Of a DNA stretch of 43,391 bases, positions 1,849-15,603 are shown one piece after another; the first letter of the stretch is position 1, and every line of letters starts with the position of its first letter. Below the pieces are notes generated by a model that ran no database searches, was not told the DNA's origin, and worked only from the letters and a program-made list of their open reading frames with translations. Where the stretch lies: positions 1 through 43,391 of the IMG/VR virus record IMGVR_UViG_3300024520_000014; one strand, given 5' to 3'. This DNA comes from a virus. A program made the translations under genes and the position numbers.

Positions 1849-1851
1849 AGG

Positions 1852-2235: not shown

Positions 2236-2237
2236 AG

Positions 2238-2396
2238 TTATTCATTAGGGTTAAAATCACACTTAATACACTCCTTCTTATAATCATTTACTATTCAGCA
2301 CTCAGGACATTCTAAGATATATATATCTCAACTTACTGAGTCAATTAGTCAACTTCCTTTCTCCCTATCTCCCTTTGTAAATTTTATTTTATCCAT
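2238..2396 (-). CDS. Small zinc-ribbon-like protein, 52 aa
   Basis: Two CxxC-type knuckles, ECPECG and KKECIKCD, about 15 residues apart, can bind one zinc ion. The N-terminus is charged. Such mini zinc ribbons often bind nucleic acid or protein partners; no specific function can be assigned. Confidence 0.65.
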
Positions 2397-2399
2397 TGT

Positions 2400-2531
2400 T
2401 TATTTTTGGTTAGATTCTAATATCTCTACACTTTTTTTATATTTCTCCATTGCTTCCATTATCTCCTTTGATCAATAATCTAAAAATTTCTCTTCATCTT
2501 TTATACATTCTAGTAATTGTTTTCTATTCAT
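2400..2531 (-). CDS. Hypothetical peptide, 43 aa
   Basis: MNRKQLLECIKDEEKFLDYG..., a highly charged helical peptide. Its first codons overlap the end of the XRE regulator by 22 nt, suggesting coupled translation. Confidence 0.6.
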
Positions 2532-2782
2532 ATTTCTAAATCCTTAATTGTTAAATTAGTTATTCTACTTGTTACAAATTCACCCCTCTTTATAGGCATA
2601 TTCAGTACTTTTAATATTCTAGTAAGATTATGTTCATATAGTCTTCAAGTCTTCTCTATGTTACAATATGAAGCTTGGGTAATATTGCTCCTCTCTGCTA
2701 GTTCTAATTGAGTATATCTAGTGTTCTCTCGCTCTTGTCTGAGTACTCTAGGATCTATCTGTATTATCTTTCATCCTGCCAT
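2510..2782 (-). CDS. XRE/Cro-CI family transcriptional regulator, 90 aa
   Basis: Residues about 14-60 form a helix-turn-helix of the Cro/CI type: LRQERENTRYTQLELAERSN, then ITQASYCNIEKTGRLYEHNL and TRILKVLNM. The Q-x-x-L-A-x-x-x-x-I-x-Q-x-x-I-x-x-E-x-G pattern is classical. As a free-standing small DNA-binding protein in the early region it is a candidate regulator of the phage promoters. No integrase was found, so a role in lysogeny is not implied. Its start overlaps the NinB-like stop by 1 nt. Confidence 0.88.
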
Positions 2783-3171
2783 TATTTCTCATAATCAAAT
2801 AAAGTTTGTAGTTCTCTCGGAGTTATTATCTCTCCACATCATAATTTCTTTCCGAAGGCTACTCCTCTTTCGATTAATAGAGTAGCTTGTTCTTTGTTAA
2901 GGTCTTTAGTACTTCATTGTATAGCTATCTCATATTGCATTCATCACATCTTTAGTTCTTTAGTTCAGAAAACTCATTTTAATAGGGCTTGTTTTGTTTC
3001 TTCTGTTGTATAGCCTAGCTTCTTACCTATTTCACTAAAAAGTCTGTAGAAAGCGTTGTTTTGTGATAGTGTGCGTTGGTTACTAGTTAAAGGTAATTCA
3101 AATATAATAAATACATCTGAGTCTTCTCTAAATGTTAGCATCTTTATTATGTCTTGTTTATTTAGTTGCAT
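2782..3171 (-). CDS. NinB-like recombination protein (lambda Orf-like), 129 aa
   Basis: After MQLNKQDIIKMLTFREDSDV the segment RTLSQNNAFYRLFSEIGKKL matches the 'RSLDQN-x-x-x-x-x-x-L' region of lambda NinB/Orf, followed by a possible counterpart of the later NinB helices. NinB proteins bind ssDNA and SSB and assist strand-annealing recombination, which fits the ERF and RusA genes nearby. The match is partial; a generic phage DNA-binding protein is the alternative. Confidence 0.5.
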
Positions 3172-3386
3172 ATTTGTTTTAAGATATTATTATTTAATGT
3201 ATTAATTCAAAAAGATAACTTTAAATTAGAATACTCTTCAATATTTTCTTTACTTCTTGATATTTCATATACTTTATTTACTTCTTTCATATGTCATATC
3301 CAAAATTCTGCTTCAATTTGTGACTTCCATTCTCTCCTTCATTCTAGTTTTTCTTTTAATTCCGATATATTATGATAATTTCCCAT
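3162..3386 (-). CDS. Hypothetical protein, 74 aa
   Basis: MGNYHNISELKEKLEGRREW..., strongly helical and charged. It overlaps the NinB-like start by 10 nt. No motif recognised. Confidence 0.7.
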
Positions 3387-3395
3387 ACTATATTA

Positions 3396-3563
3396 TTAAT
3401 CAAGTAAATCATTTAATCCTGATAGTTCTTTATTAAATACTTTTAGAGTACATTGTAAATTATACTTATATTCGTTTATAGTTTTATCTCTTTCTTTTAC
3501 AATCAACTCTAATTCTGTTATTCTGAGTAAATATTTATTATTTGGATTTATATTATTAGTCAT
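3396..3563 (-). CDS. Hypothetical coiled-coil peptide, 55 aa
   Basis: MTNNINPNNKYLLRITELEL then IVKERDKTINEYKYNL, a heptad-like helix. It contains no TGA codon. Function unknown. Confidence 0.6.
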   Translation of the reverse strand: MTNNINPNNKYLLRITELELIVKERDKTINEYKYNLQCTLKVFNKELSGLNDLLD

Positions 3564-3565
3564 TT

Positions 3566-3829
3566 TTATTTATGTTTAAAATTATCAAATCAAAACTGTA
3601 CTTCTCTTTCTATCTGCTCTTCTGTCAACTCATCATATTCAATATGAGTTATCCAGTAATCATGTAATCTAATCTTCTTAGGCTCTCTCTCTACTGTTCT
3701 TTCTCTTCTTAATAATACTTCTTCTTTGTACTTTATCTCTTTGTTTATTCTTATTGCTCTATTTCTTTTATAATTCTTTACTTGAATATCATTGTATTCT
3801 AGCATTTTCTTTTGGGCTTCTGTTATCAT
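3566..3829 (-). CDS. Hypothetical charged protein, 87 aa
   Basis: MITEAQKKMLEYNDIQVKNY..., rich in Arg, Lys and Glu, extended past one TGA to end FGFDNFKHK. Its position next to the ERF gene suggests a DNA metabolism role, but nothing in the sequence proves it. Confidence 0.65.
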
Positions 3830-3832
3830 TGG

Positions 3833-4369
3833 TTATTTAATTCATAATAAAGATAGTTTCTCTGCATTAGCTTTCGATACTTTATATTTCTTTCTAACAT
3901 CAGATATTGTATATATCGTTCAGTTTCCTACTAAATCATATAATGTATCATAATTCTTATCATTGAACCATGGTTTATCATCTTCTTCTTTCTTTGCTTC
4001 TGTTTTATTACTTGCCTTAGCTCAGTCATCATCTTCTACCTCTAAATCTAATAGAGAGAGTAGATTATATCTTCTATAGTAAGTTATTTCAGAACCTTTA
4101 TCTTGTGCTTTTATTCATTCCGATAGTGGAATAGAACTTTCTATATTATATCTTTCATCTTCTTTAGCATCTAAATCAATTATTTCTGTAATTACCTTAT
4201 TATTTTCAACTCTATGTGTTATAAATAACCTTTCTTTTTCTAATATATCTCATAATTTTTCTTGTATTTGTCATAAATCAGCATAGCTATAATTAAAAGC
4301 TTTTGTTTTCCTTTGTAATTTTATTCAAGACTGTTTTACTCTGAATAATTTATCATATATTCAACTCAT
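3833..4369 (-). CDS. erf: ERF family single-strand annealing protein, 178 aa
   Basis: Hallmarks of the ERF superfamily are clear: FNYSYADLGQIQEKL near residue 26, a central ITHRVENNKVITEIID strand region, and GSEITYYRRYNLLSLLDLEV at about 95-115 followed by the acidic EDDDG. ERF proteins anneal complementary ssDNA and drive phage recombination and genome circularisation. The C-terminal 60 residues contain a lysine-rich linker and a small WFNDKNYDTLYDLVG-type domain. It works with RusA (6543) and possibly the NinB-like protein (2782). Confidence 0.88.
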
Positions 4370-4386
4370 ATTATTAATATTATTTA

Positions 4387-4854
4387 TTAAATTAATTCTA
4401 ATGCTTTTTTTGCATCCCATTTTAGTATTCTAATTCTTTGTATTATTTTAGTGTATGGTAGATTTAATTCTTCACACCATTCAGTTAAGGTTTGTGTTCT
4501 TCCATCTATTTTAATATAAATATTAGTACATCTATTATTTGCTTGTTGCTTAGCTGTAGCCCATTTACAATTTTCTTTATAATATCATTTATTATTATCT
4601 ATTCTTTCAATACTTAATCACTCTTTATATAACTCTCACATATCTTTATAAAAATTCTCAAACTTTTTCCATTTATCACATACTATTATTCATCTATCTC
4701 AGTATCTGTGGTATCTGTTGTTATTTTTAGAAAAAATTCTTCTTATAATATTTTGCCATACCTTATATATTTTTTTCGTAGACATTCAATGTTTATATGA
4801 TGGATTTAAACTACCAATTCAACGAGACATATTCATTTTAACTCATTCTCTCAT
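4387..4854 (-). CDS. HNH-like homing-endonuclease-type protein, 155 aa
   Basis: Central block RYGDRGIIVCDKWKKFENFY, then LSIERIDNNKGYYKENCKWA and TAKQQANN, is the conserved core of a large family of stand-alone phage proteins with a degenerate HNH fold (GGRGI-x-VC...SLDRIDN...Y-x-x-x-NCRWAT). Residues 120-155 look like a DNA-binding helix-turn-helix tail. Such genes behave as mobile insertions between phage genes. The start could also be an internal Met 7 or 9 residues later. Confidence 0.75.
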
Positions 4855-4992
4855 AATACTATTTGCTTATAACAAAAAAGAACTCTCAAGGGATATATAG
4901 TCGCAAAAACTAACCTTAAAAATTCTTTTCTATCTATATATAATTATCGTTTTTGCAAAGTAATTATATTCATTTTATTTTAAATAGCAAGA

Positions 4993-5157
4993 TTAACTAC
5001 TTCCATTGTTAATATTATGTAAATTAAACTCTGCTATTGCACTGCTAACACATGATAGTTGTAATTCTCTTAACTTATCATCTGTCTTTACTGTATTTTC
5101 TTGAATCCATAACCATGTTTCAAATTCTTCCATTGTCTTTTCTATTGTTTTTTCCAT
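4993..5157 (-). CDS. Hypothetical peptide, 54 aa
   Basis: MEKTIEKTMEEFETWLWIQE..., helical. Between it and the HNH-like gene lies a 138-base AT-rich gap with a weak TTGCAA promoter-like sequence at about 4956. Confidence 0.55.
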   Translation of the reverse strand: MEKTIEKTMEEFETWLWIQENTVKTDDKLRELQLSCVSSAIAEFNLHNINNGSS

Positions 5158-5158
5158 A

Positions 5159-5248
5159 TTATATTCAATTAATTAGTAAATGTGAAATCCCTATTATAGC
5201 TATACTTGCTAGTGTTAGCGAAGTAGTAATGACTCTTATTAACTTCAT
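5159..5248 (-). CDS. Tiny membrane peptide, 29 aa
   Basis: MKLIRVITTSLTLASIAIIG... is one hydrophobic helix after a basic start. It overlaps the gene upstream by 10 nt. Evidence is its packing and an intact frame; a chance frame cannot be excluded. Confidence 0.4.
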
Positions 5249-5421
5249 AATCAATTGTAAATAAATAAAATAAACTCTGGAAACAATGCAATGAATAACA
5301 TTATAACTATTAATATAATTAATATCTTATCTCCCATTTTATACTTATTATAAAATATTTTTAGTCTTATGTTTCTATCCGTTGTCGGTTCTTGTTTAGA
5401 CTGTTTAGTATATAGTTTCAC
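5239..5421 (-). CDS. Single-pass membrane protein, 60 aa, GTG start
   Basis: I chose the GTG at 5419-5421 because the -10 box of a near-consensus promoter (5455-5483) lies 33 bp upstream and the frame is open from there. The product has a charged 28-residue N-terminus, then IIIVIMLFIALFPEFILF-like membrane helix. An internal ATG (5335-5337) would give only the 32-aa membrane part. Function unknown. Confidence 0.55.
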
Positions 5422-5454
5422 TTAATTTATGTTATTAAATGACTATATATATTA

Positions 5455-5483
5455 ATTATAGTCGAATATATAATAAAAAGCAA
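5455..5483 (-). promoter_or_regulatory. Promoter, TTGCTT-17-TATAAT
   Basis: TTGCTT at 5478-5483, 17 bp, TATAAT at 5455-5460 on the minus strand, one of the best promoters in the genome. It drives the genes from 5421 downward. Confidence 0.75.
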
Positions 5484-5502
5484 ATCTTTTTATAAAGAAA
5501 TG

Positions 5503-5880
5503 CTATTGACTTACTGGTATATTATATATAAAGTTCTTTGATTGGCTTTCGTTAGCCTTTTGTTGTATTAATGATTCTTTTTCTAATTTTCTCTTTCTAT
5601 TTATTCTTGCTTGTAATGATTCTTTAGCCTCCTTCTTTTCTTTCTTATACTCCCTATGGTATTTTCTCATCTTCTCCTTATTCTTCTGATAATACTCTTT
5701 TCAATAAGTAACATAGTCTATATTTTTCTTTTTTCACATTTCTAAACTCTTCATTAAAGTCATTGTTTTATCTTTAATAAACCACTTTTTCCATAAACGG
5801 TAACTGTAAATATAATCACCCATATCTTTTCTAATTTTTGAGTATTCTTCATAGAGTATTTTATAAGTTAGTTTTCTCAT
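5503..5880 (-). CDS. Hypothetical basic protein, 125 aa
   Basis: MRKLTYKILYEEYSKIRKDM... passes YGKEYYQKNKEKMRKYHREY, a motif seen in small phage DNA-associated proteins, into a long Lys/Glu/Arg helix and a polar tail ending IPVSQ. A 14-base inverted repeat (5544-5557) lies inside its 3' end. Likely nucleic-acid binding by charge alone. Confidence 0.65.
5544..5557. repeat. Hairpin GGCTTTCGTTAGCC, copy 1
   Basis: Inverted repeat GGCT/AGCC with a T-rich plus-strand flank. A near-identical copy (GGCTTTCATTAGCC plus seven T) lies at 40739-40752. Here it is inside a coding frame. It could stop plus-strand (antisense) transcription. Confidence 0.5.
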
Positions 5881-5883
5881 AGT

Positions 5884-6030
5884 CTACCATATAATTATTG
5901 AATAATTATTAAGTATCTTATTGTAATTGTTTCTTATATATTTTTTGGTTTCTTTATTTGCTCTATTGTAAAAAGCTATTAGTCAATTGGTATTTATGAT
6001 ATCATTCATAGTCATTTCTATTTCGTTCAT
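5884..6030 (-). CDS. Hypothetical peptide, 48 aa
   Basis: MNEIEMTMNDIINTNGLIAF... ending NNYSIIIW. Polar, helical. It lies 3 bases from the gene downstream. No motif. Confidence 0.55.
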
Positions 6031-6049
6031 TGTTTTTGTTTATTAATTA

Positions 6050-6412
6050 TTATTTATAGCTCTTCCATTTTTCATTTCATTTCCATTTGTAATATCTCAA
6101 TAGTAATTGTCTATATAACCAATCTACATTGTAAGCTAATACTTCTGTATTTTCTATTCAAGTAGATATTAGTTTATTATTCAGTATATCTTGGATTATA
6201 TGTATACATTCATGTAATAATACATAATCACATACAGCATTCAAGTATAGAAAAGCATTATTATTCCGTATATAAGTTATACCATCAGTTCATTCTAACC
6301 TATTTCAATCAAATCAATTTTTTAACATATAATCTACAAATTCTTGCCTATCTCATATAAACCAAAATACATTAAATCAGAATACATTATTATTTACTTT
6401 TATCTGTTTCAT
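6050..6412 (-). CDS. HEXXH zinc-metallopeptidase-like protein, 120 aa
   Basis: Residues 67-71 read HECIH within VCDYVLLHECIHIIQDIL, the HEXXH zinc site of zincins, and a possible third ligand E90 follows in NTEVLAYNVDWL. The spacing (HEXXH then about 19 residues to a Glu before a helix) is gluzincin-like, as in small IrrE/SprT-type and phage peptidase folds. The product is short and lacks other domains. A role such as cleavage of a host regulator is speculative; structural use of the site is possible. Confidence 0.6.
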
Positions 6413-6552
6413 TGTTTCTGTTTATTAAGTAATTTAATCTTTTCATATGCTCTGTCTATATTCCATGTTGCTATATCTCAGTAAGTCTCTATGTATTTCT
6501 GATAAAATTTAATAGCCATTATATGTTGCTCTATTTGTTCTTCTATTGTCAT
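6400..6552 (-). CDS. Hypothetical peptide, 50 aa
   Basis: MTIEEQIEQHIMAIKFYQKY... helical; overlaps the HEXXH gene start by 13 nt and the RusA stop by 10 nt, so its reading frame is well supported by context. Confidence 0.6.
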
Positions 6553-6911
6553 ATCTCTTTTATAGTTATTTCTACCTCCTTTCTATCACTATCTATCTTA
6601 GAAGTGACTATTTTTTTTATATGCTTATCTTCAAATCAAGGTATATTATCTCATAGTAGATCGAATAAAGGTTTTAGTAAGTTATCAAGGTCTTGGGTTT
6701 TCTTATTTCAATTCTTGTAATAGAGAGGTAAGAAATATATTATTGTAGCTTCTAGCCACTCATTACCGTGTATTTTATATTGTTCTTGCTTTAATAGTTC
6801 TATTTCTGCAATTTCTATCCACTCCTTATACTTTTTACTCTTATGCCTTACTCTATATCCTGCATAGCATTCATTTACACTGGGGGGGATTGTAAGTGTT
6901 AGTTTTATCAT
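6543..6911 (-). CDS. rusA: RusA-like Holliday junction resolvase, 122 aa
   Basis: N-terminal MIKLTLTIPPSVNECYAGYR, then KSKKYKEWIEIAEIEL, match RusA. The catalytic region KKTQDLDNLLKPLFDLL (D74, D76, N77, K80, D84) and the following E-D pair near 94-95 fit the three-acid Mg2+ site. RusA cuts four-way junctions symmetrically; in phages it resolves recombination intermediates and branched DNA before packaging. Length is normal (about 120 aa). TGA-Gly at residues 68, 87 and 92 must be read through to reach the active site. Confidence 0.9.
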
Positions 6912-7225
6912 ATTAATTCAGGGTTCTGATATATATTTCCTATCACTTTATAATCTGAATAAACAATAAATGGAAGATGCCTTATATCTTCTATAATTTT
7001 ATTATATTTTTTCATTCATTTCAATTTAGGTCTATGATCTTCTAATATATCTCCCTCATATATTTCTTCCCCGTCCTTGTCTTCAAGTCATGTGTACTGC
7101 ATTAATACCCAAGGTATATGTCATTCTATTTCTCAAGTAAGAGATATATGAGTAGTACTATCATATATCATTCAGCTTCCATTTTTTACTTCTTCATCCC
7201 AAGCTCTAAATTTTATTTCTCTCAT
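6905..7225 (-). CDS. yopX: YopX family protein 2, 106 aa
   Basis: Begins MREIKFRAWDEEVKNGSGMI, has the core LMQYTGLEDKDGEEIYEGDI and ends VIGNIYQNPEL. It is a paralogue of the YopX protein at the circle junction. TGA codes for the invariant Gly of YTGL-D-K. It overlaps the RusA start by 7 nt. Biochemical role of the family is unknown. Confidence 0.9.
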
Positions 7226-7470
7226 AATTCTTTTAAATAATTAATACAATCTTGCCTCACTCACTCACCACTCTTACAACTATGAACCTTTAAATGACAG
7301 TCGAAACATAGGAGTACTCATTTATCTACATTGTTTCTTTCCTTTGTTCTATCAGCCTGTAGTCAGAAATACACATGATGAGCCGAGTGTCATTGATCTC
7401 CACATAGTATACATACTTGATCTCTGTTATATATAGCTTCCTTTGTCTTATTACTAAACTTAGCCTTCAT
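7213..7470 (-). CDS. HNH nuclease, 85 aa
   Basis: A compact HNH domain: C20xxC23 (VCILCG), H31-H32 (SAHHVYFG), N47 and the second knuckle C55xxC58-H59 (LLCFDCHLKVH) with H63. The two CxxC pairs hold zinc and the histidines form the metal-dependent nuclease site. Stand-alone HNH enzymes in phages may be packaging-associated nickases or homing enzymes; position beside RusA and YopX does not decide this. Confidence 0.85.
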
Positions 7471-8096
7471 TATAATTCTATATCTTTAATCTTTAAAAAC
7501 TCTTCATAACTCATAAACTCTCATTTCTCTTTTGCTACTTTAATTAAAAACTTCTGCATTTTCTCAGTCCTTTCATCTCATGGTATAAATGCCCTAGTCG
7601 ATGTATAGTATAATCATTGATTATAAGCATATTCCAAATTTAACTTCATAAGTCTATATGGGAACCCTCAAAGAGTTTCTAATATAGTATTTTTCTTAAA
7701 CATATGAAAATGTCAATATCATTTCTTAGTCTGTACTATCTTATCTATATCACTTTTAGTAATTACTCAATCTTTTGATAATTCTATATATGTTTTATTA
7801 CTCTTCTTTAATCATAGGATCCATCATTTTTTATTGTCTATAGTATCTATAGTTCATTTAACTATCTTTAATTTAAAGCCTGTCTTCCATTCTACGTATT
7901 TAACTAATGCTGGGTAGATAATTCACGCACTCGCTCACCAAGTAAGTAATGCTCCTATCTTTTCCATATAGATAATTAGTTTTAGTATATTATCTACTTT
8001 CATTTCTATTCAATAATCGTATTTAATTATATTCAAGAATGCGTATATACTGCATGAATAGTTAGTTTGCTTTTGTGCTAATTGGTTATATCACAT
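7470..8096 (-). CDS. Hypothetical protein, 208 aa, possible C39-like peptidase fold
   Basis: The N-terminus (QLAQKQTNYSCSIYAFLNII) resembles the Q-x(n)-C-x-x-x-A start of C39-like cysteine peptidases, and a HFHMF segment near residue 140 could provide a histidine. A hydrophobic stretch at about 55-75 (ALLTWGASAGIIYPAL) and TRAFIPGDERTEKMQKFL near the end are also visible. It is the first gene after the promoter at 8127-8155. The peptidase idea is tentative. Confidence 0.6.
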
Positions 8097-8126
8097 ACTC
8101 TCTTAATTAATAATTAATATATCCCT

Positions 8127-8155
8127 AATGTATCATACTTTGATTTTATTTGCAA
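8127..8155 (-). promoter_or_regulatory. Promoter, TTGCAA-17-TACATT, repeated upstream element
   Basis: TTGCAA at 8150-8155 with TACATT at 8127-8132. The 30 bases covering the -35 box and upstream are repeated with one mismatch at the promoter at 13686-13714. Confidence 0.65.
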
Positions 8156-8176
8156 ATAATTGACTTGACTATTCAT
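8146..8176 (-). repeat. Promoter-proximal repeat, copy 1
   Basis: On the minus strand GAATAGTCAAGTCAATTA then TTTGCAAATAAAA, matching 13705-13735 at all but one base. Each copy also starts with ATG of a 20-21 codon frame (MNSQVNYLQIK here, MNSLVNYLQIK there), but the single difference changes an amino acid, so a DNA signal is more likely than a peptide. Confidence 0.7.
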
Positions 8177-8201
8177 AATCTATTTTTTAATAATTAAATA
8201 T

Positions 8202-8462
8202 CTACTCACACTCACATGATAATTCATTCAAAAAACAATCTTCATATGAATATATATATTCATAAACTTCTTCTAATTCAATTCAATATAGCTTTTGTTT
8301 TTTATTTTCGACATAATAGCGTTCTGATCATATATCTAAATCCCAGTAATGGAAATACCAGAAATTTATTCAATCTATAATAATAGGGATCTTAACCCTC
8401 AATGTGTCTTTATTCAGTTTCTGTTTGATGATTTTTCTTTTTTTATCTATGTTTATTTTCAT
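8202..8462 (-). CDS. Hypothetical protein, 86 aa
   Basis: MKINIDKKRKIIKQKLNKDT... then VKIPIIIDGINFWYFHYWDL, an alpha/beta domain with an acidic, Cys-containing end (LSCECE). No family recognised. Confidence 0.7.
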
Positions 8463-8487
8463 AATCTATAACTTAATAAGTAAAGGG

Positions 8488-8604
8488 TTATAAGTATTTC
8501 TTTTTATATTCTAGTATTTGTATAATATTTCTCGTAAACTTCTCTATTATTTCTTTCTGAGTCAATCCTCAATATTCTTTTTTTATTATATCTTTAATCC
8601 ACAT
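8488..8604 (-). CDS. Hypothetical peptide, 38 aa, HTH-like
   Basis: MWIKDIIKKEYGGLTQKEII EKFTRNIIQ... has a GLTQKEIIEKF helix-turn-helix flavour. Too short for a family call. It lies just downstream of dnaB. Confidence 0.5.
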
Positions 8605-8614
8605 ATTTTTAAAA

Positions 8615-9862
8615 TTATAAACTAAAATCTGTTTTTTCTTCTTGTATATCAATGTCTTGTAATTCTTTTGATATATCAAACTGCAACTTACTAAAGTCTG
8701 GAATTAATAAGAAAGTTTTATCACTCATTCAATACTTATTCTTTATTAAATTCATTTGTAAGTTCTTTCAATCTCTACTGAGTGCAAATATTACATCACT
8801 AGAGGCAAATATTGCCCCACTACCTTTTGGCTGTATCTTAGAACTATCTTTAAATCTACTATCATTATTAGCCTGTGATATATTAAATATAGTTGTATTA
8901 GTTGTAATTGCTAACTGTTGTAATTCCTGTGCTATCTTTGTCATCTGTTCGTATTCTGAGTTTCATTTTGTTTGTACATTCTGTATGAAATCTATATAAA
9001 CTATATCTGATTTTTCTGATTTTACTATTGCTTTTATTTCTTCTAACTTATAAACATCATCATATATTTTTAAGTTCTGAAAATCTCAAATCTCATAATC
9101 ATATCATTTTATTATTTTTTTCTGATTTATATTATAATATGATTTTAATAGAGAATTAAAGAGCATTTCTTTTTGTACTTCAAGAGAAAACACTAATACT
9201 TTCTTTTCTTTCTTTAAGTTATCTGTTATATATGAATAACTAAAATTACTCTTTCATACTCATGAGTAAGCAACTATTGTATAAACCTTTCATGGTATAA
9301 TTCATCAAGTATATTTATCTATAATAGGGTATGGTGATCAATAACCTAATCCTCATCTATTTTTATAATCATCTAGAAACTTCTCGAAACTATCACATAA
9401 TTCTATTATTGTATTTCCTTTCTTTTGTTTTATTTCTAATCAAGTCTGTAGGTCTCAAATTCTACTATATACATCTTTTATATCTTCATCATATCAAATC
9501 TTTTCTAGCTTTCTTGATTCTAGTATTATCTTTCTTCTATGAGAATGTTCTTTTATAGTTTTATCATAACTTTCCCAGAATATAGAATTTGTACATGATT
9601 CTATAATTTCAATAATATATCATATTCCTCATACTTCTTCTCAAATCTTCTTGGCTGTTATAAAATCCCTGACCATTACTAAGTCAACACATTTTCAAAA
9701 ATCTATAAGACTCTTAATAACTTTAAAAATTATCTTATGCCTATCTAAATAAAAATCTCCCTCATTGATCGTAAGTTTATTATATATTTCATTATCTATA
9801 ATAATTGAACCTAATAATGCTTGCTCTGTTTCTATTGAATATGGCAACTCCTTTGTATACAT
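8615..9862 (-). CDS. dnaB: Replicative DNA helicase DnaB, 415 aa
   Basis: The N-terminal DnaB domain begins PYSIETEQALLGSIIIDNE. The RecA-like ATPase has Walker A AYSGVGKS at about 198-205, Walker B DIVYIDFIQNV near 285-295, the SQANNDSR motif near 328 and the GSGAIFASSDVIFAL sensor region near 347. Both Walker A glycines (201 and 203) are TGA, which fixes TGA as Gly. 19 of 27 Gly codons are TGA. The hexamer unwinds the phage replication fork; the upstream gene is its probable partner. Length is slightly under the usual 440-470. Confidence 0.95.
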
Positions 9863-9867
9863 ATTAT

Positions 9868-10461
9868 TTAATTATTAATAAATTTATTTAATCAGTTTCA
9901 TTGTTTTAAGAAATCATATAGAGTAAATCTATGTTGTGAGTAATCAATATTAATATCTCTTGATTTGATCTCTTTTAAATAATTCCTAACTCATAAAACT
10001 ATCTCTTCCTGTGTATATTGTTTATCTATCTTTTTATATATGTCTTTTAAGTTATCATTTATTTTTATAGTCTTCTTCCAGAATTTATCTTTATCTTTTA
10101 ATAAATTCCACTTTTCTACTAAATTTTCTAATTTAGTATATATATCTTTATCTTTATCTTTATCTTTTAAGCTAGATTTGCTAGGTTTTGGTAGCACTTG
10201 GTAGCTTTTGCTAGCTTTTGCTAGACCTCACTTCTTGCCTTGTTCTCGCCTTTTATCACAAATAGCCTCATATTTTTCATTATCAATATCGAACTGATTC
10301 TTAAAAAAAAGGAATGCCATTTTTAAATCATCATCTAAATTATTTTCTATTCAATTTTCTTGATATTCAAATATTGCCTTCATTAGTTTTCAGAATTTTT
10401 CATCTGATAAATCTTTGATAGGTTTATACATTCATTTGTATAATATAAATCCTTTTTTCAT
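9868..10461 (-). CDS. DUF6291-like replication protein, 197 aa
   Basis: The N-terminus GFILYKGMYKPIKDLSDEKF, then GKLMKAIFEYQENG, FLFFKNQFDIDNEKYEAICD and KRREQGKKGG is the DUF6291 pattern common in phage replication modules. A Lys-Asp repeat (KDKDKDKD near 100) links to a C-terminal helical domain with an EIVLGVRNYLKEI segment. Directly upstream of dnaB it plausibly recruits the helicase, as DnaD-like or primosomal proteins do; this is inference. Translation follows a structured leader (10475-10555). Confidence 0.75.
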
Positions 10462-10474
10462 AATATATAAATTA

Positions 10475-10526
10475 AAAACAGTATCCTAGGGGCTGGTTTG
10501 TATGCGAACCCCTAAAATACTGTTTT
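10475..10526 (-). promoter_or_regulatory. Leader hairpin / putative attenuator before the dnaB operon
   Basis: A 10-bp stem AAAACAGTAT/ATACTGTTTT (10475-10484 with 10517-10526) encloses an AGGGG/CCCCT stem; on the minus strand it ends in five T about 12 nt before the operon start codon region. The loop TCGCATACAAACC is complementary to two upstream leader segments, TGTATGCGA and GGTTTGT (about 10532-10555). This could switch between structures or form a pseudoknot. Confidence 0.7.
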
Positions 10527-10558
10527 CAATTACAAACCATTTAATCGCATACATAGGT

Positions 10559-10587
10559 ATTATATACTATCTTCAATAAAAAAGCAA
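10559..10587 (-). promoter_or_regulatory. Promoter of the replication operon, TTGCTT-17-TATAAT
   Basis: TTGCTT at 10582-10587, 17 bp, TATAAT at 10559-10564. The -35 box lies inside the T-run of the upstream RNA terminator, so termination and re-initiation are adjacent. The leader to the DUF6291-like ATG is about 90 nt. Confidence 0.8.
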
Positions 10588-10697
10588 ATAAAAAACATAA
10601 GAAGACCACAGCAAAATGTTTCTTATGTAATTTATAATATACCCATTCAAAATGGTAAAAAGTTCAGAGTTCTTTTGAATCTAAAATTTAATAGGTA
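10585..10697 (-). ncRNA. Putative small RNA A, about 110 nt
   Basis: Defined by its own promoter (TTGACA 10725-10730, 16 bp, TACTAT 10703-10708) and an intrinsic terminator (8-bp stem CATAAGAA/TTCTTATG at 10596-10627 followed by six T on the minus strand). No start codon with a reasonable frame lies inside. An internal CCATT/AATGG mini-hairpin is visible. Could instead be a terminated read-through leader. Confidence 0.55.
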
Positions 10698-10702
10698 TTT
10701 GT

Positions 10703-10730
10703 ATAGTATAAATAAGTATTTTTATGTCAA
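10703..10730 (-). promoter_or_regulatory. Promoter of small RNA A, TTGACA-16-TACTAT
   Basis: Perfect -35 box TTGACA at 10725-10730 overlapping the stop codon of the 51-aa gene, and TACTAT at 10703-10708. Confidence 0.7.
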
Positions 10731-10877
10731 ATAAAATATAAAATAATTATTCTTTAATTTTAATAAAATTATTCAATATTTTGTAGTGTAATCTATATCA
10801 GAAACCCACTTAACTTTATCAAATAATTTTACACTATCTTTACTATCTCTTTGTAAATATCAAAATCTATTAAACAT
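10722..10877 (-). CDS. Hypothetical protein, 51 aa
   Basis: MFNRFGYLQRDSKDSVKLFD then KVKWVSDIDYTTKYGIILLK, a small beta-rich domain. Two TGA-Gly codons. Its last codons carry the -35 box of the next promoter. The 3-base gap to the gene upstream supports it. Confidence 0.6.
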
Positions 10878-10880
10878 ATA

Positions 10881-11102
10881 TTATTTATTTTTTATTTTAT
10901 TATAGAAATTATCTATTAATCTCTTAATAGACTTTCATTCTTTATTGCTTCCAATATCTTGCAAGTTATGTGTTATTGAAAGCATATAAATAAAATCTCA
11001 TTCCTCACAATCAGGAGTATTATAGTATTTGCTAATTGACATAGAATGTCTTTCAATTATTTTTTCTATTTTTTGCTCCATACTAATTCTCTTGCTAGAC
11101 AT
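10881..11102 (-). CDS. Hypothetical protein, 73 aa
   Basis: MSSKRISMEQKIEKIIERHS... ISKYYNTPDCEEGDFIYMLS: helical, basic ends. First gene of the transcript from the promoter at 11131-11158. No family recognised. Confidence 0.65.
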
Positions 11103-11130
11103 ATTTTATATATTATAAGGTAATGTTTTT

Positions 11131-11158
11131 ATTATATAAGATAAAAATAAGAAAGCAA
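11131..11158 (-). promoter_or_regulatory. Promoter, TTGCTT-16-TATAAT
   Basis: TTGCTT at 11153-11158 and TATAAT at 11131-11136. As at 10559-10587, the -35 box is embedded in the T-run of the preceding RNA terminator. Confidence 0.75.
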
Positions 11159-11271
11159 ATAAAAAATAGGACTTTCCTAAGTTTGCTCTGTAATCGTTCC
11201 TCGCTTTCCTCGTTAAAGGTATTTCTTGGCTTGTTACATTGTGAGACGTTCTTAAGCTTTCCCTATCTTCT
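11158..11271 (-). ncRNA. Putative small RNA B, about 110 nt
   Basis: Promoter TTGACA (11299-11304), 16 bp, TATAAT (11277-11282); terminator TAGGA-aag-TCCTA at 11167-11179 followed by six T on the minus strand. The transcript is richer in G+C than its surroundings, has a CTTT/AAAG hairpin and a duplicated CGAGGAA, and no convincing coding frame. It matches no RNA family I know. Confidence 0.65.
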
Positions 11272-11276
11272 TATAT

Positions 11277-11304
11277 ATTATATTCCTTTTATTAGTTTTG
11301 TCAA
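11277..11304 (-). promoter_or_regulatory. Promoter of small RNA B, consensus TTGACA-16-TATAAT
   Basis: Both hexamers match the sigma-70 consensus exactly, the only such promoter noted here. It suggests strong constitutive transcription of RNA B. Confidence 0.8.
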
Positions 11305-11357
11305 TAGTGTTATTGCATTTCGTACTTTGTAGGTTAGTACAAGCTAAGTCTATTGTT

Positions 11358-11681
11358 CTATTTTTGTATACAGTATCTTAAATTATAATTATATAAATTA
11401 GGAAAACCACCCTCTTTATCATCCATATAATAATCTAGCTTATCACTTGAATAACTAGAAAGGGTATCCTCAGAGATATTATGAAGTAATGCTATATATA
11501 TATCTGTAAGACTCCGGTAATCATCAGCTATCATAACTGTATCTATTCAGTACTTGTCTACGTCTCATACTATGTAATAATCATAAGTATCTATTGGAAG
11601 GTTCTCGTCATTATAGTATTTATTATAGAACTGTTCTATAAGGTCTATACATGCTTCTTGGTATTGTTTTATTTTATTCAT
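11358..11681 (-). CDS. Hypothetical acidic protein, 107 aa
   Basis: MNKIKQYQEACIDLIEQFYN... then DTYDYYIVGDVDKYGIDTVM and a Tyr/Asp-rich C-terminus. A small alpha/beta domain with net negative charge; no family recognised. It begins 12 bases after a T-run terminator (11693-11704), so its expression may be attenuated. Confidence 0.7.
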
Positions 11682-11689
11682 AGTTTTAT

Positions 11690-11765
11690 TTTAAAAAAAA
11701 CTAGCAGGTAATTACTTCATTGCCTGTTCTACTGACACAGACTCCATAACTTTTACTAGTTTAAC
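11690..11765 (-). ncRNA. Short leader RNA C with terminator, before the 107-aa gene
   Basis: From the promoter at 11772-11799 a leader of about 75 nt runs into hairpin CAGGCAAT/ATTACCTG (11705-11726) followed by CTAG and eight T. A larger ACTAG/CTAGT stem encloses it. The leader holds an 11-codon frame MESVSVEQAMK (11712-11747) that overlaps the hairpin, the layout of a translation-controlled attenuator. A stand-alone small RNA is the alternative. Confidence 0.55.
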
Positions 11766-11771
11766 TATTAT

Positions 11772-11799
11772 AGTATATTTATTTTATTATTTTAGTCAA
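11772..11799 (-). promoter_or_regulatory. Promoter, TTGACT-16-TATACT
   Basis: TTGACT at 11794-11799 and TATACT at 11772-11777; it overlaps the 3' end of the lysozyme-like gene. Confidence 0.65.
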
Positions 11800-12611
11800 A
11801 ACATATACTCTTTATAAAACTTAGTAGTAGTAACTCATCTCTTAGCATACCACATACCTTTATATGCGTGATAATGGTATCTATATATACAAGATAGTAC
11901 TCCATACTCTCAGGCTTCATATCAGTCTGTAAAGTTATGATTCTTCCAGTAGTAACCACATCTTTTACTTTTTCATACTTGTACCTTTCCTTGACTCTTT
12001 TGTCTTTTAGCTAACCATTGTAGCTGACTATCTATATCTTTAGGTATATTCCATTTTCTTAGTGTTTGTACATATCCTTTAGCATATGGATTACTAGCAT
12101 TCTCATCAAAGTTACTCTCAAAGTTTACTATTGCCAGTCTATTAGTTATTTCAAATGGATTAAAGTATTTTAACCATATCTTTATTTGGCTTCTAGGTGG
12201 TAGAGTTATATTGTGATCCCCTCATCTCGTACATTTACTTGCTTCTCTTGTAGTTTTATCTCTATCATTATAACAACCTATAACTGTTTTTTCAGTTGGG
12301 AAGTGAGATAAATAATATCCATATTCACCCATTACATCATAGTTAGCTTTGTTTTTCTCACTTACAGTTACATTGTGTGCCTCTACTGGTATAAGATTCA
12401 TTACAGCTCAAATTAATATGGTTATAGCTATAGTGAGCATAATAGGTTTTGACTTAGTTGTTAATCTATTTACTTTTCTACTTCTCCTTTGTTTTTGTAT
12501 TTGATCCGTTGTTTTCCTATCTGATAGGTTTATAGTATACTTATCTGTTACTAATTTGTCAAAATTCCTCTGACTCAATGCACCATTAAAACCCCTTTTT
12601 ATTCCTTTCAT
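11787..12611 (-). CDS. Membrane-anchored lysozyme/transglycosylase-like protein, 274 aa
   Basis: A basic cytoplasmic N-terminus is followed by one membrane helix at about 57-74 (IMLTIAITILIGAVMNLI). The outside part contains IVNFESNFDENASNPYAKGY at about 161-180: a Glu (E165) before S-N-F-x-x-x-A, then a downstream Q, as in SLT-type lytic transglycosylases. Cysteines at 113, 127 and near 210 could form disulphides. It would cut host peptidoglycan from the outer face of the membrane, as a signal-anchored endolysin. It is separated from the virion genes and has its own leader. Confidence 0.6.
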
Positions 12612-12648
12612 TTTTCCTTTTTTAATAATAAATTTGTTTTTGTTTTTG

Positions 12649-12678
12649 TTTAAACTGGTCGAATTCGACCAGTTTAAA
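12649..12678. repeat. Perfect 30-bp palindrome
   Basis: Two 15-base arms, TTTAAACTGGTCGAA and its exact complement, meet with no spacer. It lies 38 bp before the lysozyme-like ATG, in the transcript leader. No T-run follows on either strand, so it is not a normal terminator. It could be an operator or an RNA hairpin masking an upstream Shine-Dalgarno sequence (12681-12689). Confidence 0.85.
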
Positions 12679-12690
12679 ACCCTCCTTTTA

Positions 12691-12838
12691 ATTAATTATT
12701 GAGTTAATAAATTAATTTTCACATTTTTTAATTAATCGTTTTTCCTTTAAGTATCATAAAAAATATAGTATTTAATAACTTAATTGTTGTGTTAATTAAT
12801 TAATTTTTCACATTATTAATTAATCATTTCCCCTTTAT
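12691..12838 (-). repeat. Tandem imperfect repeat, two units of about 57 bp
   Basis: Units at about 12691-12748 and 12780-12838 share the minus-strand pattern AAGG-(G/A)AAA(C/T)G then ATTAATTAA, AATGTGAAAA and TTAATTAACWCAAYAATTAA. Each contains an AAAGG box and a five to six codon frame beginning ATG-TGA. They may be protein or RNA binding repeats in a leader, or an AT-rich unwinding region. Confidence 0.7.
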
Positions 12839-12939
12839 ATATGATTATTCTGAATCTCCTTTTGATCCTTTTTGTATAATAGTAACTTGCTTCTTAAAAA
12901 ACCTTTCAAATTTTTTGAGTGCAGAATTTCCTCCTTCAT
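12835..12939 (-). CDS. Possible basic peptide, 34 aa
   Basis: ATG at 12937-12939 opens MKEEILHSKNLKGFLRSKLL..., overlapping the 21-aa frame at 12894 in another register. Its own ribosome site is weak, but a strong AAGGAGG lies just inside. Could be noise within a regulatory leader. Confidence 0.35.
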   Translation of the reverse strand: MKEEILHSKNLKGFLRSKLLLYKKDQKEIQNNHI

Positions 12940-12959
12940 AATTCATACATAAATTCCAT
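12894..12959 (-). CDS. Possible leader peptide, 21 aa, with strong Shine-Dalgarno
   Basis: The minus-strand sequence AAAAGGAGG, 8 nt, ATG is a textbook ribosome site, rare in this genome. The frame MEFMYELGRRKFCTQKIGKVF includes two TGA-Gly codons and ends at TAA 12894-12896. It may be a translated leader controlling the downstream lysozyme-like gene. Confidence 0.5.
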
Positions 12960-13021
12960 AACTTATTCCTCCTTTTCATGTAGTTTGGTTAAATAATAAA
13001 ATAATAAGTTGATGTATATAA

Positions 13022-13050
13022 AGCTTACCACTCTTTTTTATAGATTGCAA
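13022..13050 (-). promoter_or_regulatory. Promoter, TTGCAA-17-TAAGCT
   Basis: TTGCAA at 13045-13050 and a weak -10 TAAGCT at 13022-13027, right after the T-run of RNA D. It would transcribe the repeat/SD leader and the lysozyme-like gene. Confidence 0.5.
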
Positions 13051-13061
13051 CTATTTGACAC

Positions 13062-13183
13062 AAAAAAACATAGGTTTAAGAAAGTACGAGGCTTTCTACT
13101 ACTCTATGCTTGTGATTTAAGGCTTATAATACAGGCAATACCTGATTTTGCAACTATAAGGTTGAAACTTAAACCCTTAGTTT
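13062..13183 (-). ncRNA. Putative structured RNA D, about 120 nt
   Basis: The ends pair: AAGG(G)TTTAAG at the 5' side with CTTAAACCT at the 3' side, followed by ATG and seven T. Inside are a CTTATA/TATAAG arm topped by CAGG-tattg-CCTG and a hairpin GAAAG-cctcgta-CTTTC. A promoter sits immediately upstream (13185-13211). The multi-arm closed fold with its own promoter and terminator is strong evidence for a functional RNA. It fits no family I can name. Confidence 0.65.
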
Positions 13184-13184
13184 T

Positions 13185-13211
13185 ATTATATTTATTTATC
13201 AATAATTGCAA
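13185..13211 (-). promoter_or_regulatory. Promoter of RNA D, TTGCAA-15-TATAAT
   Basis: TTGCAA at 13206-13211 and TATAAT at 13185-13190; the 15-bp spacing is short. The predicted start falls at the first paired bases of RNA D. Confidence 0.6.
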
Positions 13212-13239
13212 GTTTATATGTATCAACCGTGAGACATAT

Positions 13240-13279
13240 AAAAAAACATGTATCATTTTTTAGTGTTTATGATACATGT
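13240..13279 (-). terminator. Intrinsic terminator
   Basis: An 11-bp stem ACATGTATCAT/ATGATACATGT (13246-13256 with 13269-13279) followed by seven T on the minus strand. It begins at the stop codon of the 26-aa gene. Confidence 0.85.
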
Positions 13280-13359
13280 TATACTTCTCTGAGTCTGTTT
13301 ATACGGCTTATCTTCTCTTTGTAGATTATAACCTTATGGCTCTTTTCCTGTGTTTTCAT
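13279..13359 (-). CDS. Small basic peptide, 26 aa
   Basis: MKTQEKSHKVIIYKEKISRI NRLREV, strongly basic, starts 5 bases after an inverted repeat (13365-13402) and ends in a strong terminator, so it forms a tiny single-gene unit. Function unknown. Confidence 0.5.
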   Translation of the reverse strand: MKTQEKSHKVIIYKEKISRINRLREV

Positions 13360-13364
13360 AATAA

Positions 13365-13402
13365 AAATCTTATATACTAAGTAATATTAGTATATAAGAT
13401 TT
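13365..13402. repeat. 15-bp inverted repeat (operator or AT-rich terminator)
   Basis: AAATCTTATATACTA (13365-13379) and its exact complement (13388-13402) with an 8-base spacer. Minus-strand T-rich flank TTTTTATT follows, so it may terminate the 65-aa gene transcript or serve as an operator over a TATAAT-like site at 13403-13410. Confidence 0.7.
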
Positions 13403-13442
13403 ATTATAATACACAAGTCTTTAATGTAAAGATTGTGTGAAG

Positions 13443-13640
13443 TTACTGTCTTGCTCAAATAAGTGCTTGTAGTTCTTTTATTTCATTCTTCTTATTTTCT
13501 ATCTGTTCATCTATTAAGGGGCTACTTTTAAATCTCTTGTTTTTCTTTAATGACTGTATAGCTTTTAGTTCTTCTTCTTTTCTTCTTATACTTTTTATAA
13601 TTCCTTGATAGTATACATCATCGGGTATGTTTTTTTTCAT
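13443..13640 (-). CDS. Hypothetical coiled-coil protein, 65 aa
   Basis: MKKNIPDDVYYQGIIKSIRR then KEEELKAIQSL and IENKKNEIKELQAL, two heptad-rich helices ending GARQ. First gene after the promoter at 13686-13714. Function unknown. Confidence 0.65.
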
Positions 13641-13685
13641 AGTTCTTAAATTAAAAATAAATGCAAGTGTTATCTTACATTTATA

Positions 13686-13714
13686 ATGTTATCATGTTTT
13701 ATTTTTATTTGCAA
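13686..13714 (-). promoter_or_regulatory. Promoter, TTGCAA-17-TAACAT, repeated upstream element
   Basis: TTGCAA at 13709-13714 and TAACAT at 13686-13691. Upstream bases match the promoter at 8127-8155. Confidence 0.65.
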
Positions 13715-13735
13715 ATAATTGACTAGACTATTCAT
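13705..13735 (-). repeat. Promoter-proximal repeat, copy 2
   Basis: Second copy of the 31-base element described at 8146-8176, with one mismatch, again covering the -35 box. Confidence 0.7.
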
Positions 13736-13787
13736 ATAATACCTCTCTAGGGTATCAATATTCATATTCTTCCTCTTCTGTTCCCAT
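13728..13787 (-). CDS. Possible acidic peptide, 19 aa
   Basis: MGTEEEEYEYGYPREVLYE, in frame and packed against the basic 38-aa gene upstream. Its size makes it uncertain. Confidence 0.35.
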
Positions 13788-13788
13788 A

Positions 13789-13905
13789 CTATTTCTTCTT
13801 TTTTCTTATTCTTTTCTTTTTACCACCTCATAAACTTTCATTTATATTCTTAGCTGTAAATTTATTTATCTTTTTCTTAAATATTTTTCTAGGTTTTAAT
13901 ATCAT
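13789..13905 (-). CDS. Small very basic protein, 38 aa
   Basis: MILKPRKIFKKKINKFTAKN... GGKKKRIRKKKK: nearly half Lys/Arg. Likely binds nucleic acid or membrane phosphate; no family. Confidence 0.5.
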
Positions 13906-13915
13906 TTTTTAAAAT

Positions 13916-14389
13916 TTATTCATATAAAATATTATTTCTATTTTGCAGATACTCTTCTTCTGATATTGTACTATCTGCTATATACCATTTGATTCATATG
14001 GCTCATCATATCACTAATATTACTATTGTATACAGTACAAATAGTACTAAAGCTCTGAATGTTCTTCCAAGTTCACTTTGCATTTTCTTAGGAGTTTCCA
14101 TGTTTTCTTGATTAAGGATATAATTTATTATCTCAATACAAGTATATCAATCTTTCTTTAAATTTGCAAATTTTGACATCTTTATCTCTCATATTTCATA
14201 TGTATTATATACTCTTTCACAATCCTTGTTATACTCTAAGCCATTATATTTCTTAAAATGTCATCATGTTATCAAGAAGAATTTTACCTCATACTCCCAA
14301 CTCCAGTACATCTCTCAGTCATATATAACATAATGCTTTAGTCATAAACTTCAACATTTAGTATTACTAATGTATTCAATTATTTTCAT
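13916..14389 (-). CDS. Membrane protein, 157 aa, one C-terminal helix
   Basis: A soluble 110-residue N-terminal region (MKIIEYISNTKCGSLGLKHY...) is followed by FRALVLFVLYTIVILVIGG at about 118-136 and a short tail. It sits in a group of small membrane proteins (13.9-15.1 kb) beside the PLA2-like protein, which hints at a role in envelope changes or lysis. Confidence 0.65.
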
Positions 14390-14562
14390 TTAAAATTAAA
14401 CATATCTTTTAAATCTATTCATACAAATAAAGCTGGTATAATAAAAAGGAAATAGTCAACTTCTTTAAAGAATATATGAATAAAAGTCAATACAACTATC
14501 ATTCACAATCAAGAGAAATTAAGTATTATGTCAAACATTCATTTTTCTCTTATTTCTTTCAT
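14380..14562 (-). CDS. Two-pass membrane protein, 60 aa
   Basis: Hydrophobic segments IILNFSGLGMIVVLTFIHIF and FLFIIPALFVGI separated by KEVD. Overlaps both neighbours. A holin-like size and topology, but not diagnostic. Confidence 0.6.
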
Positions 14563-14692
14563 TCCTCATTTTTTTTATACTAAAACTTATTCATGCACCC
14601 ATTATTAATCAAAACAAAACTCATAAAAAGAACTCAATTCATATAAAACTTGCTGTAGTGAGTGATGCCACCCCTATACTATCTCTTAACAT
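14519..14692 (-). CDS. Small membrane protein, 57 aa, holin candidate
   Basis: An N-terminal amphipathic part, then one or two helices (SFIGIEFFLGVLFGLIMGAG) rich in TGA-Gly, and a basic tail KKMRNERNKRKM. Short protein with hydrophobic helix and charged tail is the general plan of phage holins. It overlaps the next gene by 44 nt and the PLA2-like gene by 7 nt. Confidence 0.55.
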
Positions 14693-15135
14693 TTTTCGTT
14701 ATTTTTATTAATAAAATAACTCCTTTTTCTTCTTTTTCAGAACTTAAATGCTGGATCGTAACCTATTAAAACAAGTCATATTGCATCTATTAATGTACCT
14801 ATTATACCAACTCATATAAAGTATATAAATGCCAGTACTACTCTTAGTATATTACCTAATCAGTAAAAGTCAAAGTAAGTAAAAGCAGAAAGAACCATTT
14901 CTATAAACATACATAAATCTGCCCAGAACTTACGGAATAAATTACCACCACACATATACCTTATATCATGTCTATTACATATATTAGAGTATTGTCTAGC
15001 ATATGGGGGTCTAAATATACCTCTTGCACTTCAGCACCCATTAGAGAAGTATTCTATCTCCTCTAGTTTCCAGTATTCTCAGTTTATATATTCATAGTGA
15101 TTTATTTTAGTTCCTCCTTTTTTCCTTTCTTTCAT
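14686..15135 (-). CDS. Phospholipase A2-like membrane protein, 149 aa
   Basis: Residues 31-75 read SNGCGSARGIFRPPYARQYS, then NICNRHDIRYMCGG and WADLCMF. This is the PLA2 fold signature: a Gly-Cys-Gly calcium loop, C-x-x-H-D-x-x-Y with catalytic H56-D57, and the second Asp (D73). One or two membrane helices follow (about 77-126). It could attack host phospholipids during lysis or entry; it is not known to be a virion part. The second Cys of CCxxHDxCY is absent, as in many bacterial and phage relatives. Confidence 0.7.
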
Positions 15136-15138
15136 AAT

Positions 15139-15585
15139 CTACTGATTATTTAGTAATATTGTTGACTGAGTATCAGATACAAGAGCTTTAAAATCAATAA
15201 AGTCCTGATATACAAAAGGTATAGGGTCATAATTATAATCAAGTACATTGATAGGCTCTAAACTATTCTCTTTTACATCCATAAACTGTGCTAATACAGG
15301 AGCAAAGTCTTTCTTTCTTATTTTAAACTTTCAATTTACCCCTCATATAGTAGTAAAGTCAAGAATAGTTTCTCATATATCTTTCCTTATATTGGCTTGT
15401 CTATCTACTTCTAGTAATTCAGCTTCTACTGTTACCCAAGCAGTGTCTAGTTCGGCTTGGGTGGGTTGAGTGATTTCAGTATTTAACCAAGTTAAAATAT
15501 CTCATTGTCATAGATTAACTACATCATAATCTATTTCATCCTTTAAGGTAGGATATAGATATCTAAGTGTCAGTATAATTTCCAT
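15139..15585 (-). CDS. Fibre-associated protein, XkdW/tail-assembly-like, 148 aa
   Basis: LRYLYPTLKDEIDYDVVNLG, then DILTWLNTEITQPTQAELDT resembles small proteins encoded just after phage fibre genes, which begin with a 'sequence of bases/acids in the query' domain and the phrase ...QPTQAELDAA. The C-terminal half looks alpha/beta. It follows the C1q fibre gene, so a fibre accessory or chaperone role is likely. Confidence 0.55.
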
Positions 15586-15603
15586 TATATATTTTATTAT
15601 AAA

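What the first reader, a model, noticed from the sequence alone, without database searches (positions are those of the whole stretch)
8615..9862. TGA is read as glycine across the whole genome (table 25)
Seen: frames are broken by TGA at conserved Gly sites (DnaB 201 and 203 in GVGKS, TerL 107, methyltransferase motif I, YopX TGL) and no recognised gene needs TGA to end; all end in TAA or TAG; TGG stays at Trp sites. Known: this code occurs in Absconditabacteria and Gracilibacteria. Inference: the phage infects one of these.
Basis: partly seen in the sequence, partly recalled or inferred. Interest (0 to 1): 0.8.

Follow-up and report, generated by a model that had tools for sequence, protein, structure and literature searches.

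The report
Phage reading TGA as glycine
This complete virus genome reads the usual stop codon TGA as the amino acid glycine throughout, as its likely Gracilibacteria-type bacterial hosts do, and its family probably also reads the codon CGG as tryptophan, a combination that no listed genetic code has.

Summary
Confirmed: the window is a complete 43.4-kb phage genome (127-bp terminal repeat), all genes on the minus strand, with 613 in-frame TGA codons (5.1%). Against standard-code homologues of eight families, all 14 invariant columns facing a TGA are glycine; glycine scores +30.7 nats, the next residue -1.4, tryptophan -54.5. At 31 homologous gene ends in related phages the stop is TAA or TAG, never TGA. 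The phage has no tRNA gene, so the host must supply the decoding.

Two refinements. First, plain table 25 is probably not exact: in this phage family CGG falls on Trp/aromatic sites (one terminase site is Trp in 12 of 12 homologues), CGA on Arg sites. That is neither table 25 (both Arg) nor table 37 of Absconditabacterales (both Trp); it resembles low-GC Gracilibacteria-type genomes sampled here. Second, the putative major capsid gene avoids TGA for glycine (pooled 15%, other genes 53-79%) in four phages, as ribosomal-protein genes do in about half the class genomes sampled.

No CRISPR spacer or prophage link was found. TGA=Gly phages of these bacteria are already published; the CGG reading in a phage appears new.

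The parts
8615..9862 (-).
27821..29452 (-). terminase large subunit, 20 in-frame TGA; TGA107, 141, 191 face invariant Gly
42334..42924 (-). C5 cytosine methyltransferase, motif I glycines coded by TGA (codons 9 and 11)
6905..7225 (-). YopX-family protein, TGA46 at an invariant Gly
22919..23458 (-). HNH endonuclease, 15 TGA, several at invariant Gly (151, 170)
21873..22403 (-). second HNH endonuclease, 15 TGA, Gly17, 163, 170 conserved
3833..4420 (-). ERF-type ssDNA annealing protein, used in the residue test
20830..21843 (-). putative major capsid protein; only 4 of 24 Gly codons are TGA
   Evidence: identity by gene order and a weak hit of its distant relative L019 to phrog_1650 major head protein
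22431..22955 (-). small gene just upstream of the capsid gene (decoration-like, inferred), also poor in TGA (4 of 14)
25769..27742 (-). portal protein (SU10-like); holds a CGG codon at 279 on a site that is Y,Y,I,V in relatives
26906..26908 (-). CGG codon, portal 279, probably Trp
   Evidence: +5.2 bits as W
11514..11516 (-). CGG codon, no homologue to test
6266..6268 (-). CGG codon, slightly favours Arg by profile (-1.2 bits as W)
40923..40925 (-). CGA codon facing Arg (CGT, AGA) in two relatives
10246..10248 (-). CGA codon in DUF6291-type protein, favours Arg by 2.8 bits over Trp
2729..2731 (-). CGA codon in helix-turn-helix protein, favours Arg by 5.0 bits over Trp
313..42924 (-). whole gene array: 54 ORFs, 613 in-frame TGA, ends TAA (44) or TAG (10)
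1..127 (.). terminal direct repeat, copy 1 (copy 2 at 43265-43391); marks a complete genome

Best explanation
A complete tailed-phage genome whose proteins are translated with TGA = glycine everywhere and only TAA and TAG as stops (shown by homology). The phage carries no tRNA gene, so the glycine tRNA with anticodon UCA and the lack of TGA termination must come from the host (inferred). The host belongs to the class that unites Gracilibacteria and Absconditabacteria, more likely a low-GC Gracilibacteria-type lineage than Absconditabacterales (inferred). In this phage family CGG is probably also read as tryptophan, presumably by a host tRNA-Trp with anticodon CCG, while CGA stays arginine (supported by few sites). 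TGA is a permanent code and not a switch for late genes, but seems less favoured than GGN where output must be highest, since the putative capsid gene avoids it.
For: 14 of 14 invariant columns facing TGA are Gly; LL Gly +30.7, next Ser -1.4, Trp -54.5; same method recovers known codons. Window TGA faces 447 TGA and 116 GGN but 1 TGG in 877 relative codons; window GGN faces 230 TGA in 587. 31 homologous gene ends use TAA or TAG only. TGA share equal in non-structural (0.67) and structural (0.61) genes; no tRNA. CGG: W +8.3, R -3.3; CGA: R +5.5, W -5.6, site list, profile scores. Host genomes with CGG facing Trp and CGA nearly absent: G183, G009, G014, G027. Shared DNA with class genomes. Known code-25 phages: PMC10746230.
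Against: The CGG reading rests on four aligned sites in the family and only one aligned site in the window; two profile tests lean to Arg by 1.2 and 2.8 bits. In G255, which shares an RNA element with the phage, CGG sites are mixed (W 2, R 1.5, K 1). No spacer or prophage ties the phage to a named host.
Confidence: 0.9

Rival explanations
1. Exact NCBI table 25: TGA = Gly and everything else standard, with CGG = Arg; the CGG codons on Trp sites are chance substitutions or sequencing errors.
For: CGG is rare (3 in the window); two profile tests lean slightly to Arg; one class genome, G219, does read CGA and CGG as Arg.
Against: Terminase CGG276 of G005 faces Trp in 12/12 homologues, and no aligned CGG site of the family faces Arg. 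The portal CGG is the same in G001, a separate contig, and in G002, which argues against sequencing error.
Confidence: 0.2
2. NCBI table 37 (Absconditabacterales): TGA = Gly and both CGA and CGG = Trp.
For: CGG part fits; that order has the TGA = Gly code and known code-25 phages (PMC10746230, PMC8629427).
Against: CGA faces Arg codons at three family sites and Lys at others; R +5.5, W -5.6; two window proteins lose 5.0 and 2.8 bits with CGA = Trp. Genomes that read CGA as Trp use it 45-114 times per 10,000 codons, the phage 4.
Confidence: 0.04
3. TGA = tryptophan (table 4, Mycoplasma-like).
For: Commonest bacterial TGA reassignment; low GC.
Against: Trp scores -54.5 against +30.7 for Gly; Trp would be 5.9% of residues; TGG sits on Trp sites.
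Confidence: 0.002
4. Regulated readthrough: the phage infects a standard-code host and uses in-frame TGA as a late-gene switch.
For: Some recoded phages of standard-code hosts keep in-frame stops mainly in late genes (PMC10746230).
Against: TGA share is the same in replication and structural genes and even along genes; no suppressor tRNA; highest-output structural gene has the fewest TGA.
Confidence: 0.01

Closest known systems
Code-25 phages and prophages of Absconditabacteria and Gracilibacteria (Liu et al. 2023, PMC10746230)
   Same: High density of in-frame TGA read as Gly, coding density collapses under code 11, phage shares the host's code.
   Different: That paper tests code 25 against code 11 by coding density and spacers and does not mention CGG. 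Here residue-level proof is given, no spacer link was found, and CGG probably means Trp.
NCBI table 25 (SR1 and Gracilibacteria)
   Same: TGA = Gly, TAA and TAG stops, CGA = Arg.
   Different: CGG = Arg in table 25; the phage family favours Trp.
NCBI table 37 / Absconditabacteria code of Shulgina and Eddy 2021 (PMC8629427)
   Same: TGA = Gly and CGG = Trp.
   Different: CGA = Trp there; in the phage family CGA sits on Arg sites.
Gracilibacteria predicted to read CGG as Trp, and phages that follow the AGG = Met code of some Bacilli (both PMC8629427)
   Same: CGG = Trp beside TGA = Gly in some bacteria; precedent for phages following a host's sense-codon change without their own tRNA.
   Different: The CGG prediction there concerned bacteria only; here it is seen in a phage family.

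Membership tests
NCBI table 25 | TGA = Gly | tested here: met
NCBI table 25 | TAA and TAG are the only stops | tested here: met
   31 homologous ends
NCBI table 25 | TGG = Trp | tested here: met
   W +33.1
NCBI table 25 | CGG = Arg | tested here: inconclusive
   family sites favour Trp over Arg by about 11.6 nats, but few sites and only one in the window aligned
NCBI table 25 | CGA = Arg | tested here: met
NCBI table 37 | TGA = Gly | tested here: met
NCBI table 37 | CGA = Trp | tested here: not met
   R +5.5, W -5.6
Code-25 phages of Absconditabacteria/Gracilibacteria | coding density far higher with TGA as sense | tested here: met
Code-25 phages of Absconditabacteria/Gracilibacteria | CRISPR spacer match in a host of these groups | tested here: inconclusive
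   no credible spacer in 288 class genomes for window 1-40000, with limited sensitivity
Code-25 phages of Absconditabacteria/Gracilibacteria | host tRNA-Gly(UCA) decodes the phage's TGA | not testable with these tools
   phage has no tRNA; the host genome is not identified

The most novel reading that the evidence does not exclude
The phage family and its hosts use an unlisted code with TGA = Gly, CGG = Trp and CGA = Arg: two codons normally read by overlapping tRNAs have been split, the phages have followed the host's sense-codon change, and UGA-glycine decoding stays costly enough that the capsid gene is largely purged of it.
Probability: 0.65. Interest if true: 0.65.

Novelty: new variant of a known kind. 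Interest (0 to 1): 0.5.

Why it matters
Phages that read TGA as glycine are already known, so the headline is not new. What is new is that a phage genome may report a second, sense-codon change of hosts nobody has grown. If CGG is Trp and CGA is Arg, listed tables 25 and 37 are both wrong for this branch, gene calls under them misplace tryptophans, and codon meaning becomes a host-prediction tool finer than the TGA test. The avoidance of TGA in the putative capsid gene of four phages, parallel to ribosomal-protein genes of some class genomes, makes it testable whether UGA-glycine decoding is slow or error-prone.

Tried and rejected
TGA = Trp, Cys or another residue: rejected by the masked-codon test. 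CGA = Trp: rejected. My first reading of the eight CGA/CGG contexts was that all looked like Arg; codon alignments changed this for CGG. Spacer candidates in G010 and G183: AT-only or unrepeated sequence with no array around. Prophage search with the terminase profile: two weak matches only; portal profile in genome contigs: nothing. Capsid fold: pLDDT 28.6, discarded. RusA homologues in phages: none. Homologues for ORFs 11358-11681 and 6050-6412 to test their CGG codons: none. Idea that the RNA at 13055-13192 is part of a CRISPR system: no repeat array beside it in two class genomes, dropped. Rfam: no family.

Full report
WHAT WAS CHECKED. The window is an IMG/VR virus record of 43,391 bases with a 127-bp terminal direct repeat, so the genome is complete. 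The 54 genes that I accepted all lie on the minus strand and cover 84% of it; they hold 613 in-frame TGA, 364 GGN and 98 TGG codons. Glycine would be 3.0% of residues without TGA and 8.1% with it. With TAA and TAG as the only stops there are 12 stop-free stretches of 300 codons or more; with all three stops there is none, and random sequence of the same first-order make-up gives none. No tRNA gene is present.

WHAT TGA MEANS. I masked TGA and aligned eight window proteins (DnaB, TerL, methyltransferase, YopX, ERF, two HNH endonucleases, putative capsid) to homologues read with the standard code, from GenBank phages and from IMG/VR. Of 83 aligned TGA sites, 14 face a column that is invariant in at least three homologues, and all 14 are glycine. 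Summed over sites glycine scores +30.7 nats, serine -1.4, tryptophan -54.5. The same procedure recovers the known residue for GGN, TGG, TGY, AGR/CGY, GCN, Ser, Asp and Asn codons. Against six related recoded phages (terminase 60-82% identical) TGA exchanges with GGN in both directions and almost never with TGG. At 31 gene ends that align between the window and its relatives the stop is TAA (28) or TAG (3), with no TGA read on the way; this removes the circularity of calling ORFs with table 25.

NOT A SWITCH. Recoded phages of standard-code hosts may keep in-frame stops mainly in late genes (PMC10746230). Here the TGA share of glycine codons is 0.67 on the non-structural side and 0.61 on the structural side, and TGA is spread evenly along genes. 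With no suppressor tRNA either, the host must supply the reading (inference).

A SECOND CODON. Two listed codes have TGA = Gly: table 25, otherwise standard, and table 37 (Absconditabacterales), in which CGA and CGG are also Trp (table numbers from my own knowledge). The latter rests on PMC8629427, which adds that some Gracilibacteria may read CGG alone as Trp. I looked at every CGA and CGG codon of the family: 8 in the window, 11 in relatives. CGG: in relative G005 the terminase CGG 276 faces Trp in all 12 homologues, six of them distant, standard-code sequences; in G003 the terminase CGG 354 faces W, W, W, F, Y; the portal CGG 279, shared by the window, the near-identical contig G001 and G002, faces Y, Y, I, V; a fourth site faces Y and W. 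Read as Trp, the VRR-NUC protein of G005 gains 4.5 bits and the window's portal 5.2 bits against their PHROG profiles; two other proteins lose 2.8 and 1.2 bits. Over the four aligned sites W scores +8.3, Y +4.3, R -3.3; without the best site W +4.7, R -2.4. CGA faces Arg codons at sites in the window's adaptor gene, in G005 and in G007, and Lys elsewhere; R +5.5, W -5.6; two window proteins lose 5.0 and 2.8 bits if CGA is read as Trp. So the family most likely reads TGA = Gly, CGG = Trp, CGA = Arg. The step from family to window rests mainly on the portal codon.

THE HOST. A DNA pattern for the GTPase motif GHVDHGKT with TGA as second glycine, run over the GTDB genome contigs, returned 26 loci, most titled Gracilibacteria or uncultured bacterium, which gave entry to genomes of the class. 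From several hundred kilobases I estimated codon meanings by all-against-all alignment. Three patterns appear: CGA = Trp and frequent (G024, G025, G031, G015), as expected of Absconditabacterales; CGA and CGG both Arg (G219); and low-GC genomes in which CGA is nearly absent and CGG faces Trp (G183, G009, weaker in G014, G027, G286; mixed in G255). The phage (CGA 4 and CGG 2 per 10,000 codons) matches the third. BLAST of window 1-20000 and 20001-40000 against 288 class genomes gave no credible spacer, and the terminase profile found no close prophage. There is DNA-level sharing with class genomes: 81% over 190 bp of a DUF6291-type gene (G269) and a structured RNA at 84% and 78% (G255, G252). 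The host is assigned to the class with good confidence and to a lineage other than Absconditabacterales with moderate confidence.

CAPSID AVOIDS TGA. The putative major capsid gene uses TGA for 4 of 24 glycines in the window (p = 4e-6 against the rest of the genome), 6 of 25 in G002, 0 of 29 in G005 (p = 2e-19) and 7 of 22 in G007. Pooled over aligned parts the share is 0.15, and 0.26 in the neighbouring small gene, against 0.53-0.79 in the other genes tabled. Ribosomal-protein stretches show the same avoidance in about half of the sampled class genomes (G183 0.42 against 0.78) but not in others (G009, G016, G024). The simplest reading is selection against UGA-glycine in the most heavily translated genes of phage and host. 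Recent arrival of the capsid gene from a standard-coded phage is an alternative that I cannot exclude, since distant standard-coded relatives exist (L019, L195), although all four phages, with capsids 62-72% identical to the window's, keep the bias. The capsid identity rests on gene order and a weak PHROG hit of L019.

KNOWN OR NEW. Phages that read TGA as glycine were reported for Absconditabacteria and Gracilibacteria in 2023 (PMC10746230), from IMG/VR among other sources; I could not check whether this record is among them. The CGG reading in a phage, its separation from CGA, and the capsid bias were not found in the literature held.

Noticed in passing
window 13055-13192, minus strand: A structured RNA that ends in a terminator hairpin and T-run; 8 base pairs change on both sides in only three sequences. 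It is shared at 84% and 78% DNA identity with class genomes G255 and G252 (near a ribonucleotide reductase gene) and found by covariance model in 3 of 288 class genomes, not in the related phages; no Rfam family.
   Followed up: partly
window 20830-21843; same gene in G002, G005, G007: The putative capsid gene avoids TGA as glycine codon (0 of 29 in G005), unlike nearly all other genes.
   Followed up: partly
window 36638-38341, minus strand: Glycine-rich virion protein, 26.5% Gly, 101 TGA and 49 GGN codons, with runs of repeated TGA that create many spurious ORFs on both strands.
   Followed up: no
window 21873-22403 and 22919-23458: Two HNH endonuclease genes of homing type flank the small gene next to the capsid gene; neither is shared in place by the relatives, and G009 holds DNA 67% identical to the first.
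   Followed up: no
window 9868-10461, minus strand: DUF6291-type gene whose start is 81% identical in DNA to a gene in class genome G269 (L208:996-1184), so genes move between this phage and its host class.
   Followed up: no
L039:9-81 and L040:154-230 (relative G005): The related phage G005 carries predicted tRNA-Ala(TGC) and tRNA-Glu(TTC), but no tRNA for TGA or CGG.
   Followed up: no
L019 and L195: Standard-coded phages of 49-56% GC hold capsid proteins 35-37% identical to that of the window: one capsid lineage on both sides of the code boundary.
   Followed up: partly
class genomes G009, G183, G014, G027, G024, G025, G031, G219: Bacteria of the TGA = Gly class seem to use at least three readings of CGA and CGG, and only some avoid TGA in ribosomal-protein genes.
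   Followed up: partly
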